Made by a program: the position numbers and the translations under genes | From: a virus | IMG/VR virus record: IMGVR_UViG_3300046810_000554 | Span: 1 to 57,843 of that record | Length of the DNA: 57,843 bases | Reading direction: 5' to 3' (one strand) | The notes under the pieces: generated by a model | Told to the model about the DNA's origin: nothing | The model's database searches: none | The model's input: only the letters and a program-made list of their open reading frames with translations | Shown here: positions 14,488-17,913 of the stretch, one piece after another | How positions within the stretch are numbered: the first letter of the stretch is position 1 | Layout of the letters: each line of letters begins with the position of its first letter

Positions 14488-14790
14488 ATGAGTAGCGCCA
14501 AACCAGCAGTACGAGTCGAGATGTCCGGGGTAGAGCGCTTGGGGCTGCGAGTGTCAGAAATGATCAACCATCCAGTCGCGCAGGTTCAGCGCTGGGTGAC
14601 GATTCACCGCCTGGATACAGATGGGGATCGGGAGTGGGAGGAGGTGATGGGAGTTTTATCCGCTACGGACGAGCTGGATTTAACGTTCGAGGATGATGGT
14701 GCCGTGACGGTGAGGTGGGAGCCGGTTGCGGTGGAAGATCGGCCGAGCGAGGCGGCAGAGGAGAGGGATGAGGAGCCAGCGCCTTTTTGA
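14488..14790 (+). CDS. DUF1654 family protein
   Basis: 100 residues, strong AGGAGGG before the ATG. It fits the Pseudomonas DUF1654 pattern: SGVERLGLRVSEMINHPVAQ, then QRWVTIHRLDTDGDREWEEVM and a strand-rich end (ELDLTFEDDGAVTVRWEPV) with an acidic tail. Members are common in Pseudomonas chromosomes and phages and of unknown function; some are linked to stress responses. It starts 70 bp from the CI operators and points away from the leftward operon, so it may be CI-regulated. Confidence 0.75.
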   Translation: MSSAKPAVRVEMSGVERLGLRVSEMINHPVAQVQRWVTIHRLDTDGDREWEEVMGVLSATDELDLTFEDDGAVTVRWEPVAVEDRPSEAAEERDEEPAPF

Positions 14791-15512: not shown

Positions 15513-15550
15513 GCAAAAGAAAAGCCCGTGATGGGGAGTCAACGGGCTTA
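15513..15550 (-). terminator. Rho-independent terminator ending the immunity-region transcript
   Basis: AAGCCCGT (15522-15529) pairs with ACGGGCTT (15542-15549); read leftward the stem is followed by TTCTTTT. It lies downstream of the DUF2388 gene on the same strand. Confidence 0.8.
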
Positions 15551-15609: not shown

Positions 15610-15936
15610 TCAGTGCGAAGTCGCGATTGCCTGGGCCAGTTGTATGTCCGACATAAGTGGCGGGCTGTAGGTCTCGCGATAGTAGCGAGCCGCCTGCTCA
15701 AACTGAGCACCACGAATTTCACCGTCTGAACCGATGAAAGCAAGGGCATCAGCTTTAGCCAAGCCAAAATACTTGTTGGGATGAGACGTGACATCGGTGG
15801 CGGCAGAGCTGAAGAAAGTCGGTCCAGTAGTAGTCCGAACCATCGCACGATCAATGGGGTTATCAATCTGACCTGCCGCCGCCCGGGTACTGCCCAACGC
15901 AAGCAATGCGATTGCCAAAACTTTCAAAGCTGCCAT
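15610..15936 (-). CDS. DUF2388 family exported protein
   Basis: 108 residues with a cleavable signal peptide (KVLAIALLALGSTRAAAGQ, cleavage probably after AAA/AG). The mature part has ATDVTSHPNKYFGLAKADALAFIGSDGEIRGAQFEQAARYYRET, matching the Pseudomonas DUF2388 pattern (KADAxxFIxSxGxIRGA). Predicted periplasmic; function unknown. Being on the cI strand upstream of the terminator, it could be made in the lysogen and act as a conversion factor. Confidence 0.75.
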   Translation of the reverse strand: MAALKVLAIALLALGSTRAAAGQIDNPIDRAMVRTTTGPTFFSSAATDVTSHPNKYFGLAKADALAFIGSDGEIRGAQFEQAARYYRETYSPPLMSDIQLAQAIATSH

Positions 15937-16035
15937 TCCCTGCTGATTCCCTCACGCTTAACTAGTGCGCATGACGATAGCAGAAGTGGTTCAAGCATAA
16001 AACGAGAAGCCCGGCGCTTGACCGGGCGTGCCTGA

Positions 16036-16569
16036 TCACAGAGGTGATTTTATATCGCTGTCGAAATCGAGCTGCTTGGGATTCGCAGGGATGCTGGACA
16101 GGGACCGAGCTAGAATTCCAACCGTCCCGGCTCGTCGGTATATCTGCTTATCATGAGTCCAAATTTCTTTTGCGCCAGAGGCTACTGAAATAGCCAAAAT
16201 CTGCCGATCATATTTGAGCTTGGCCATCGTCGAGTCAGGATCAAGCATTTTCATTTCTTGGTTACTGACGAGCATCGCGCACTCTATTGCCGCCAGCTGA
16301 TCAAACGCTGATATCTCGATGCATTTGACGCTATTGATAATGTCCAGATGCTTCTGATAGCTGTCACGGCTAATACCTATCAAGTATTCAGCCAATACGG
16401 GGGCGGGCAGTACAACTACGCCCTTGATAGCTTCGATCTTCTCTACAAGAGCCTGAGCCCGCATAAAGGCGTTATCAACAATTTGATCCGTCTCTGGATC
16501 ACGAAGATCCCTGGCCCCTTCGTTTTGCATGATCTGGACTAGGACATTTGTATCAATGACGATCTTCAA
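16036..16569 (-). CDS. PIN-domain (VapC-like) nuclease
   Basis: 177 residues. MKIVIDTNVLVQIM gives the first PIN acidic residue (Asp6); LPAPVLAEYLIG supplies the conserved Glu near 60, KLKYDRQILAISVA the Asp near 119 and TNVL...WTHDKQIYRRAG the last acidic site near 140. All four metal-ligand positions are present, so it should be an active Mg-dependent RNase. It is longer than typical VapC toxins (about 130-140) because of an insertion at 15-45. It follows the 16572 gene by 2 bp and so is its co-translated partner. Confidence 0.85.
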   Translation of the reverse strand: MKIVIDTNVLVQIMQNEGARDLRDPETDQIVDNAFMRAQALVEKIEAIKGVVVLPAPVLAEYLIGISRDSYQKHLDIINSVKCIEISAFDQLAAIECAMLVSNQEMKMLDPDSTMAKLKYDRQILAISVASGAKEIWTHDKQIYRRAGTVGILARSLSSIPANPKQLDFDSDIKSPL

Positions 16570-16571
16570 TC

Positions 16572-17312
16572 CTAACCCCTTGTTTCCAAAATACTGGAGT
16601 GGCCGCTAGACATTTCGTTCCAATCAACCCCCCCTGCGGCTTTGAGCCTGGCTATAGCTTCCTTGAAGCCAATGTCTTCCAACTTGGTGAATGTGCTTAT
16701 CCTCAACTTCACCAGCTTCCATACCCCATCACTGGAGCGCTGCCACTCACCATCACCGTGCAAGCGAACAGGCTTGAACAGCAGCTGCGCTAGACGTTCT
16801 GCGATTGCGACATCTGCTTCGCATAACAAGCTCTCATTGTCGGCACCTTCAATCCTGACTGGTACCGTATCATCCTTGCCGCCGACACTGTAAAGGCGTC
16901 CTTGTATACTGGACGGTTTAACTATTCGAAGGGGGGGCTCTTCATACTTGATGCTAGGGAACTGGAATATCTGCGCTCCCTCAGACCTTATGGACGCCCC
17001 TGTACCATCGGCCGCCATGAGTCCTGAAAGAGTTTTGTAGGCAGAGATGGCCGACTTTTTCCCCAGCCCGCCAGATACCTCGCGCACCTGGTTCATCACA
17101 AGTGGGAAAGCTTTTTCCTCTACGTAGGACTTCAGCTGGGCCGAGCCAGTGTCCACGCGATCGAAATGAACGGAATCCTCGCAGCCATAGAACGCGGAAA
17201 GTGCGCGCAGGTAGTCCGCAAGCCGCCTCATCGAGAGTTGGCCGGGGGTGAGGTCGTCGAGGTAAAGCGTTAACTCTTTCATCAGCTGATTATAGTCATG
17301 CGTCCATTTCAA
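16572..17312 (-). CDS. Unrecognised partner of the PIN nuclease
   Basis: 246 codons from a TTG; an in-frame ATG at 17282 would give 236. Neither has a good ribosome site. Residues 1-75 are helical (QLMKELTLYLDDL; LRALSAFYGC), followed by KKSAISAYKTLSGLMAADGTGASIRSEG and a strand-rich half (GRLYSVGGKDDTVPVRIEG; LLFKPVRLHGDGEWQRSSDG; WKLVKLRISTFTKLED). It is not an antitoxin family I know. Being directly upstream of the PIN gene, it may be its inhibitor or the sensing subunit. A -10-like TATAGT at 17320-17315 could give a separate promoter. Confidence 0.7.
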   Translation of the reverse strand: MKWTHDYNQLMKELTLYLDDLTPGQLSMRRLADYLRALSAFYGCEDSVHFDRVDTGSAQLKSYVEEKAFPLVMNQVREVSGGLGKKSAISAYKTLSGLMAADGTGASIRSEGAQIFQFPSIKYEEPPLRIVKPSSIQGRLYSVGGKDDTVPVRIEGADNESLLCEADVAIAERLAQLLFKPVRLHGDGEWQRSSDGVWKLVKLRISTFTKLEDIGFKEAIARLKAAGGVDWNEMSSGHSSILETRG

Positions 17313-17396
17313 TCACTATAGGCAATCGTCGCCCTTACAAATTCGCGACGCACGAGCTACTCATCCCTATCCCGAACAATCCGCTAATTCCGCACC

Positions 17397-17615
17397 TCAC
17401 CGGCGCACGCCATAGAAGTGGCTCAGAGCTGCCAGCTCAAGCACAGTCACGAAAACGCAAAGCACAACGAACCGAGGGCTGAAAACCCGCTTGCGATTGG
17501 ATGCTCCACTGGACAGCAAACTATCGCCGCTGTAACCAGGAAACATCATCAAGAGCGCAACCAGAGTATAGGTCCCTGCCTTGCTCCAGAACCCCTGTGT
17601 TCGCCATTGAGTCAT
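17397..17615 (-). CDS. 72-residue two-span membrane protein
   Basis: Start chosen at the ATG at 17615, with AAAGGA upstream; the frame is open to 17699. Two hydrophobic stretches, GTYTLVALLMMFPGY (about 14-28) and RFVVLCVFVTVLELAALSHF (about 48-67), flank a short basic loop (SNRKRVF). Predicted inner membrane. It lies between cI and the PIN pair, the region where lambda has the membrane protein RexB, but shows no similarity I can claim. Confidence 0.5.
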   Translation of the reverse strand: MTQWRTQGFWSKAGTYTLVALLMMFPGYSGDSLLSSGASNRKRVFSPRFVVLCVFVTVLELAALSHFYGVRR

Positions 17616-17655
17616 TGGTGGTCGGTCCTTTCCCTGCAAATCTCCATTACGCCGG

Positions 17656-17895
17656 CTATTCGGCCCGTTCCCGTACAATCCGCCCGTCTCGCACTTCATC
17701 CGCGTAGCTTGCGAGCTTGTCCTCGGATGCCTGAAATACTACGCAGATCTTCAGCAGCGTCTGCGCATCTGACTCATTGCCCGCCAGGCTCAACCGCTCA
17801 GCAATCCGCAACAGGTCAACAGTTGCCCACTTCAGGTCTGATGCCGACCCTGTGAGGTCGCGCCGGAGCTGTTGATTTGGTTTGTTCAGAGGCAT
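17656..17895 (-). CDS. 79-residue helical protein behind cI
   Basis: ATG at 17895 after AGGAGG, 18 bp past the cI stop, so co-transcribed with it. Helical, with DLKWATVDLLRIAERLSLAGNESDAQTLLKICVVF. No family recognised. Expected to be expressed in the lysogen. Confidence 0.6.
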   Translation of the reverse strand: MPLNKPNQQLRRDLTGSASDLKWATVDLLRIAERLSLAGNESDAQTLLKICVVFQASEDKLASYADEVRDGRIVRERAE

Positions 17896-17913
17896 AAGTC
17901 CTCCTGCTATCAA

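What the first reader, a model, noticed from the sequence alone, without database searches (positions are those of the whole stretch)
16036..17312. PIN nuclease plus unknown partner in the rexAB position of a lambdoid prophage
The two genes lie 2 bp apart on the cI strand between the repressor and the leftward operators, upstream of the terminator at 15513. This is where lambda carries rexAB and where P22-, HK97- and mycobacterial-type prophages carry exclusion genes expressed in the lysogen. The PIN protein keeps all acidic residues and is longer than ordinary VapC. The partner is 246 codons, far larger than typical VapB antitoxins, with a strand-rich C-terminal half that contains (L/F)YSVGGKD...HGDGEWQR. 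A large sensing or inhibiting subunit plus an RNase is a plausible abortive-infection system.
Basis: partly seen in the sequence, partly recalled or inferred. Interest (0 to 1): 0.85.

Follow-up and report, generated by a model that had tools for sequence, protein, structure and literature searches.

The report
Prophage RNase toxin with OB-fold guardian
A Pseudomonas prophage carries a compact two-gene cassette, a predicted RNA-cutting PIN toxin and a large, previously undescribed partner with a nucleic-acid-binding-type fold; the same pair recurs across many bacteria and sits where other prophages keep genes that shut out rival phages, so it is probably an uncharacterised toxin-antitoxin-type phage-exclusion system.

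Summary
Two co-directional genes lie 2 bp apart downstream of cI. The partner "A" most likely starts at ATG 17282 (236 aa, not 246). The pair is a self-contained cassette: a strongly conserved TATAAT-bearing element lies just upstream and an intrinsic terminator just after the PIN stop; DNA similarity to other Pseudomonas prophages ends at the cassette edges.

A has no Pfam, NCBIfam or PADLOC match. AlphaFold plus Foldseek give an N-terminal alpha/beta domain, an OB fold and a conserved Trp...Arg C-terminal tail. The PIN keeps its acidic residues and is VapC-like in fold.

The pair is strictly coupled: 42 of 43 genome loci found with PIN alone have A upstream, and the last is a contig edge. 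It occurs sporadically in about six phyla. In E. coli P22-like prophages it occupies exactly the sieA slot.

Six loci have a broken PIN with intact A; none shows the reverse. This suggests that A restrains PIN.

Best reading: a VapBC-like toxin-antitoxin-type exclusion module with an unusual OB-fold antitoxin that may also sense infection. Toxicity, neutralisation, phage exclusion and the trigger are all untested. Verdict: new variant of a known kind.

The parts
17287..17322 (-). Conserved promoter/operator-like element; -10-like TATAAT at 17294-17289, 6 nt before ATG 17282 (possibly leaderless mRNA); contains imperfect inverted repeat TATAGTGAT-N12-ATGACTATA
   Evidence: Alignment of seven Pseudomonas loci: 29 of the 36 nt before the ATG invariant, against 11 of 77 four-fold sites in A. 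The consensus scan did not call a promoter here. Promoter function inferred.
16572..17282 (-).
   Evidence: phrog_19868 7e-59, unknown function; no Pfam/NCBIfam/PADLOC match; AF2 pLDDT 87.7
16962..17282 (-). A residues 1-107: N-terminal alpha/beta domain (b-a-b-b-a-a-b-b) with invariant S47
   Evidence: AF2 secondary structure; BFVD top match a DUF6575 protein, E 3.7e-09 but TM only 0.34; conservation
16683..16928 (-). A residues 119-200: OB-fold domain with conserved G128, G134, G135, G176, W180, R182, W188
   Evidence: Foldseek PDB matches: Stn1, LysRS anticodon-binding domain, ExoVII, SSB (E 2e-05 to 1e-03); conservation
16575..16682 (-). A residues 201-236: C-terminal tail, two helices with W221 (90%) and R235 (96%), proposed PIN-inhibiting tail
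   Evidence: compared with VapB11 Trp54/Arg62 (PMC6265470). Binding inferred; no sequence match to VapB
16036..16569 (-). PIN-domain nuclease (177 aa, TTG start with AAGGGG upstream), putative RNase toxin
   Evidence: PF01850 8.5e-08; phrog_21691; AF2 pLDDT 87.5, best PDB folds are VapC toxins; acidic residues invariant in 50 relatives
16009..16027 (-). Intrinsic terminator directly after the PIN gene (7-bp stem, 6 G-C pairs, tail TTCTCGTTTT)
   Evidence: fold z = -2.55. The scan's overall terminator count was not above shuffles; this one is selected by position and stem strength.

Best explanation
The pair is a self-contained, horizontally mobile toxin-antitoxin-type exclusion cassette. The PIN protein is a VapC-like RNase. 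Protein A binds it and keeps it off, probably by placing its C-terminal tail with the near-invariant Arg235 into the acidic active site, as VapB does to VapC. Unlike known VapB proteins, A carries a new N-terminal alpha/beta domain and an OB fold, which I infer senses nucleic acid or a nucleic-acid-binding phage protein during infection. When a second phage disturbs A, the PIN is released, cuts host or phage RNA (tRNA is the likeliest target by analogy with VapC) and aborts the infection, protecting the lysogen population. Shown by computation: two genes under purifying selection, strict linkage, fold assignments, cassette boundaries, position at superinfection-exclusion loci in separate prophage lineages, decay asymmetry. 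Inferred: inhibition by the tail, RNA target, trigger, phage exclusion.
For: Linkage: 42 of 43 genome loci retrieved with the PIN alone have A immediately upstream; the 43rd is cut by the contig edge. In the same 385 alphaproteobacterial genomes searched with each protein, every pair with room on the contig is complete except one with a broken PIN. A and PIN distances correlate, r = 0.85 over 41 pairs, best of 2000 permutations 0.35. Folds: PIN to VapC; A C-terminal half to OB fold. Tail: W221 and R235 conserved 90% and 96%; in VapBC11 a conserved VapB Trp is buried in VapC and a conserved Arg pairs with the active-site acids (PMC6265470). Decay polarity: PIN broken with A intact in L017, L066, L095, L106, L107, L110; A broken with PIN intact in none apart from contig edges. 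Cassette: flanks unrelated outside about 16.04-17.38 kb, own terminator, conserved upstream element. Location: after cI in Pseudomonas prophages and phage Pacha; sieA slot in E. coli P22-like prophages.
Against: No experiment. Decay asymmetry rests on six cases (one-sided p about 0.016 under equal rates) and some may be sequencing errors: Sinorhizobium K101 is frameshifted, while strain M103 gives a single uninterrupted match over PIN residues 1-149. Chromosomal neighbours of the pair are mixed and only a few are defence genes, so no defence-island signal was shown. The tail has no sequence match to VapB and no complex could be modelled. The DefensePredictor PIN system DS-5 shows that a two-gene PIN system can need both genes without being a TA (PMC13092281).
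Confidence: 0.5

Rival explanations
1. A plain addiction module: A is the antitoxin of the PIN toxin, but the pair only stabilises prophages, plasmids and islands and has no anti-phage role.
For: Found on plasmids and chromosomes as well as prophages; polarity of decay; sporadic distribution of a few percent in Alphaproteobacteria and under 1% in Gammaproteobacteria samples.
Against: A is three times the size of usual VapB and carries an OB fold, which a pure antidote would not need; repeated placement at exclusion loci of different prophage families.
Confidence: 0.25
2. A two-subunit effector like DS-5: A is not an antitoxin but a recognition subunit whose OB fold brings the PIN nuclease to a phage nucleic acid, so both genes are needed for defence and neither is toxic alone.
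For: OB fold of the kind that binds tRNA anticodons and ssDNA; precedent of DS-5, a PIN plus unrelated partner where loss of the partner abolishes defence without toxicity (PMC13092281).
Against: Loss of PIN with A retained in six cases and never the reverse is expected for an antitoxin, not for an obligate complex; the conserved C-terminal Arg/Trp tail fits an inhibitor.
Confidence: 0.2
3. The pair serves phage or host RNA metabolism (for example tRNA or mRNA turnover in lysogens) and is neither addictive nor defensive.
For: PIN domains and OB folds also occur in RNA-processing enzymes (general knowledge; HARP RNase P is among the PIN fold matches).
Against: Sporadic occurrence, mobile-cassette boundaries and lack of a fixed neighbourhood are not typical of processing enzymes.
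Confidence: 0.05

Closest known systems
VapBC type II toxin-antitoxin systems
   Same: PIN-domain nuclease with VapC as best solved folds; two-gene operon with the putative antitoxin first and short overlap or gap; C-terminal helical tail with conserved Trp and Arg as in VapB11 (PMC6265470).
   Different: Partner is 230-260 aa with alpha/beta plus OB domains instead of a small RHH/AbrB-type DNA-binding antitoxin; the PIN protein is longer (152-194 aa in the relatives). No sequence match to any VapB.
DS-5 (DefensePredictor, PMC13092281)
   Same: Two-protein E. coli system of a PIN ribonuclease and an unrelated partner, with anti-phage activity.
   Different: DS-5 partner has DUF5830 and an AcrIF4-like domain; no member of family A matches DUF5830. 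DS-5 sequences could not be compared directly.
DUF6575 defence protein (PMC9519451)
   Same: A DUF6575 phage protein is the best viral structural match of A (BFVD E 3.7e-09 over 252 columns), and DUF6575 occurs in an experimentally selected defence system.
   Different: TM-score only 0.34 with flexible domain arrangement; no sequence match of A to PF20215. Relationship suggestive only.
SieA of phage P22 and RexAB of lambda
   Same: Same genomic slots: sieA lies between gene 16 and mnt in P22, and rexAB next to cI in lambda (general knowledge); lysogen-expressed exclusion genes.
   Different: [quoted passage not shown] RexB is a membrane protein (general knowledge). Here one partner is a predicted nuclease and no homology was detected.

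Membership tests
VapBC (type II TA) | PIN-domain toxin with conserved acidic active site | tested here: met
   PF01850 above cut-off; D6, E61, D121, D140 invariant in 50 sequences; VapC folds top Foldseek
VapBC (type II TA) | Two-gene operon, antitoxin gene first, short overlap or gap | tested here: met
   A precedes PIN at gaps of -14 to +17 nt in all intact loci listed
VapBC (type II TA) | Small antitoxin with RHH, AbrB, HTH or Phd DNA-binding N-terminus | tested here: not met
   No Pfam or NCBIfam match in 51 members; model shows alpha/beta plus OB fold, about 240 aa
VapBC (type II TA) | C-terminal antitoxin tail with conserved Arg neutralising the PIN acids | tested here: inconclusive
   W221 and R235 conserved in two C-terminal helices; no sequence match to solved VapB; complex not modelled
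VapBC (type II TA) | Toxin harmful alone, neutralised by antitoxin | not testable with these tools
   Indirect only: six PIN-broken/A-intact loci, none the other way
VapBC (type II TA) | Autoregulation at an operator upstream of the operon | tested here: inconclusive
   Strongly conserved element with inverted repeat and TATAAT; binding not testable
DS-5 | Partner with DUF5830 | tested here: not met
   No DUF5830 match in 51 members or in the E. coli relative
DUF6575 defence family | Match to PF20215 | tested here: not met
   No PF20215 match in 51 members at E 0.1, despite a structural hit
Prophage superinfection-exclusion genes (functional class) | Expressed from prophage and excludes other phages | not testable with these tools
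   Position only
Moron (phage cargo cassette) | Own promoter and terminator, inserted between genes that are adjacent in relatives | tested here: inconclusive
   Terminator and conserved TATAAT element found, similarity confined to the cassette; related phage Medea1 lacks the pair; promoter activity and exact junctions not proven

The most novel reading that the evidence does not exclude
A is the prototype of a new antitoxin class in which an OB-fold nucleic-acid sensor is fused to a VapB-like inhibitory tail, so that infection-derived ssDNA, RNA or a phage single-strand-binding protein directly unlocks a PIN RNase: a single-step phage-sensing toxin-antitoxin family spread over about six phyla and traded between the exclusion loci of unrelated prophages.
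Probability: 0.3. Interest if true: 0.8.

Novelty: new variant of a known kind. Interest (0 to 1): 0.6.

Why it matters
How toxin-antitoxin modules sense phage is an open question. A PIN module whose partner carries a putative nucleic-acid-binding domain, and which prophages place at their exclusion loci, offers a direct and testable case. The family is widespread, occurs in E. coli (33 of 5426 complete genomes), is not recognised by PADLOC and is annotated only as 'hypothetical protein' and 'PIN domain-containing protein'. I found no paper describing it in the library searched.

Tried and rejected
Scanning with the ten-row A alignment in genome contigs and viral contigs failed for lack of conserved stretches; PIN-based and sub-family scans replaced it. 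Sequence searches of A against PDB gave nothing. PF20215 was searched in 274 genomes to compare DUF6575 with A: the only hit was a sub-threshold coiled-coil ORF, judged chance. Weak A-profile hits L076 and L077 are rRNA methyltransferases. L029 first looked like A-broken/PIN-intact but both genes are damaged. L106 and L107 looked like solo A; each keeps only the start of a deleted PIN gene. L129 looked like solo PIN; it is cut at the contig edge. L064's PIN falls below the length cut-off used for 'intact' and was treated as divergent, not broken. PADLOC PDC-M11A matches to the PIN are weak and unrelated in length. Neighbourhood census gave no third conserved gene. Paper searches for this pair by accession found nothing.

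Full report
What is there. The window is a 57,843-base virus record with the gene content of a lambdoid siphovirus prophage of Pseudomonas: RecT/RecE-type recombination genes, an anti-repressor-like (Rha/Ant-type) regulator, O-like replication gene, NinG, terminase, portal, tape measure and a J-type tail fibre. Both ORFs are real genes: against five Pseudomonas relatives synonymous differences are near saturation (pS 0.67-0.85) while pN is 0.06-0.12.

Corrections to the coordinates. A most likely begins at ATG 17282 and has 236 residues. Distant relatives start at the equivalent ATG, and the ten upstream codons lie in a stretch conserved as DNA: of the 36 nt before the ATG, 29 are invariant in seven loci, whereas only 11 of 77 four-fold synonymous sites in A are. 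That stretch contains TATAAT six bases before the ATG and an imperfect inverted repeat, so a promoter (perhaps giving a leaderless mRNA) with an operator is likely but inferred; the consensus scan did not call it. An intrinsic terminator starts 9 bp after the PIN stop (16027-16009). Similarity to other Pseudomonas prophages covers about 16.04 to 17.38 kb and ends abruptly on both sides. The relative Medea1, which shares the replication and nin region, lacks the pair. The pair is therefore a self-contained cassette.

The pair is strictly coupled. Relatives of A in plasmids and in phage Pacha have a PIN gene next to them. Scanning 84,980 species genomes with the PIN alignment returned 43 loci; 42 have A directly upstream and the last is cut by the contig edge. 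Searching the same 385 alphaproteobacterial genomes with A and with PIN gave the same genomes, except one with A and a broken PIN and one PIN cut by a contig edge. Viral scans agree. A and PIN distances correlate (r = 0.85, n = 41; best of 2000 permutations 0.35); this control does not remove shared descent. No third gene is conserved. The pair occurs in Alpha-, Beta- and Gammaproteobacteria, Acidobacteriota, Gemmatimonadota, SAR324, Latescibacteria and Paceibacterota (record titles), and sporadically: about 3% of sampled Alphaproteobacteria, under 1% of Gammaproteobacteria, 33 of 5426 E. coli.

Folds. The PIN model (pLDDT 87.5) matches VapC toxins best. The A model (pLDDT 87.7, pTM 0.52, so domain arrangement is uncertain) has an N-terminal alpha/beta domain, a beta barrel whose PDB matches are OB folds of Stn1, LysRS, ExoVII and SSB, and a tail of two helices. 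The best viral match is a DUF6575 protein (E 3.7e-09, TM 0.34); DUF6575 was found in an E. coli defence selection (PMC9519451), but A does not match PF20215. In the tail W221 is kept in 90% and R235 in 96% of relatives. In the solved VapBC11 complex a conserved VapB Trp is buried in VapC and a conserved Arg pairs with the active-site acids (PMC6265470). The resemblance in layout suggests the tail inhibits PIN; it is not a homology result (one search found no VapB).

Polarity of decay. Among the loci examined, six have a broken or deleted PIN with an intact A (L017, L066, L095, L106, L107, L110). None, contig edges aside, has a broken A with an intact PIN. Under equal rates this has a one-sided probability of about 0.016. 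Sequencing errors may account for some cases: Sinorhizobium strain M103 gives an uninterrupted match over PIN residues 1-149 where K101 is frameshifted. But A is the longer gene, so errors should hit A more often. This is what an antitoxin would show, and it argues against a complex that is harmless and needs both parts.

Position. The pair follows a repressor on the same strand in the window, in several other Pseudomonas prophages and in phage Pacha. In E. coli it lies in P22-like prophages between gene 16 and mnt. P22 itself carries sieA exactly there, and SieA excludes superinfecting phages (PMC10883804). Different phage families thus place the same pair at slots known for superinfection exclusion. 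Defence hotspots at fixed prophage positions, including next to cI, are documented (PMC9122126). Chromosomal copies have mixed neighbours with only a few restriction-type genes, so a defence-island association was not shown.

Mechanism. The best-supported model is a toxin-antitoxin-type exclusion cassette: PIN as RNase, A as bound inhibitor, with A's OB fold as a candidate sensor. Catalysis, inhibition, target, trigger and phage exclusion are inferred. Rivals are a pure addiction module and a DS-5-like effector pair (PMC13092281).

Known or new. The PIN is a known kind and the two-gene layout is TA-like. The partner fails the small-DNA-binding-antitoxin feature of VapB, so the pair should not be filed as VapBC; it probably works like one. 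I rate it a new variant of a known kind.

Noticed in passing
window 15610-15936 (-): DUF2388 protein (PF09498, 5.9e-17) just beyond the cassette terminator, a possible second cargo gene.
   Followed up: no
window 17397-17699 and 17656-17913 (-): Two small genes of unknown function (phrog_29612, phrog_6388) between cI and the pair.
   Followed up: no
window 17287-17322: Inverted repeat TATAGTGAT-N12-ATGACTATA (8 of 9) overlapping the -10-like element, possible operator for autoregulation; not clearly conserved through compensatory changes.
   Followed up: partly
L094 10387-10809: 140-aa gene of unknown function downstream of the pair in E. coli P22-like prophages, in the remaining part of the sieA slot; no sieA annotated there.
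   Followed up: no
G003:C14 25019 and 36906; G012:C6 242202 and 296719; L027/L029: Some replicons carry two A genes; on the Cupriavidus necator plasmid pplas2 one pair is intact and one degraded.
   Followed up: partly
L089 4001-4654: A identical to the phage Pacha protein up to residue 218, then sequence departs and no PIN follows, a possible recombination junction inside the tail.
   Followed up: no
window 14488-14790 (+): DUF1654 protein (PF07867, 1.1e-24).
   Followed up: no
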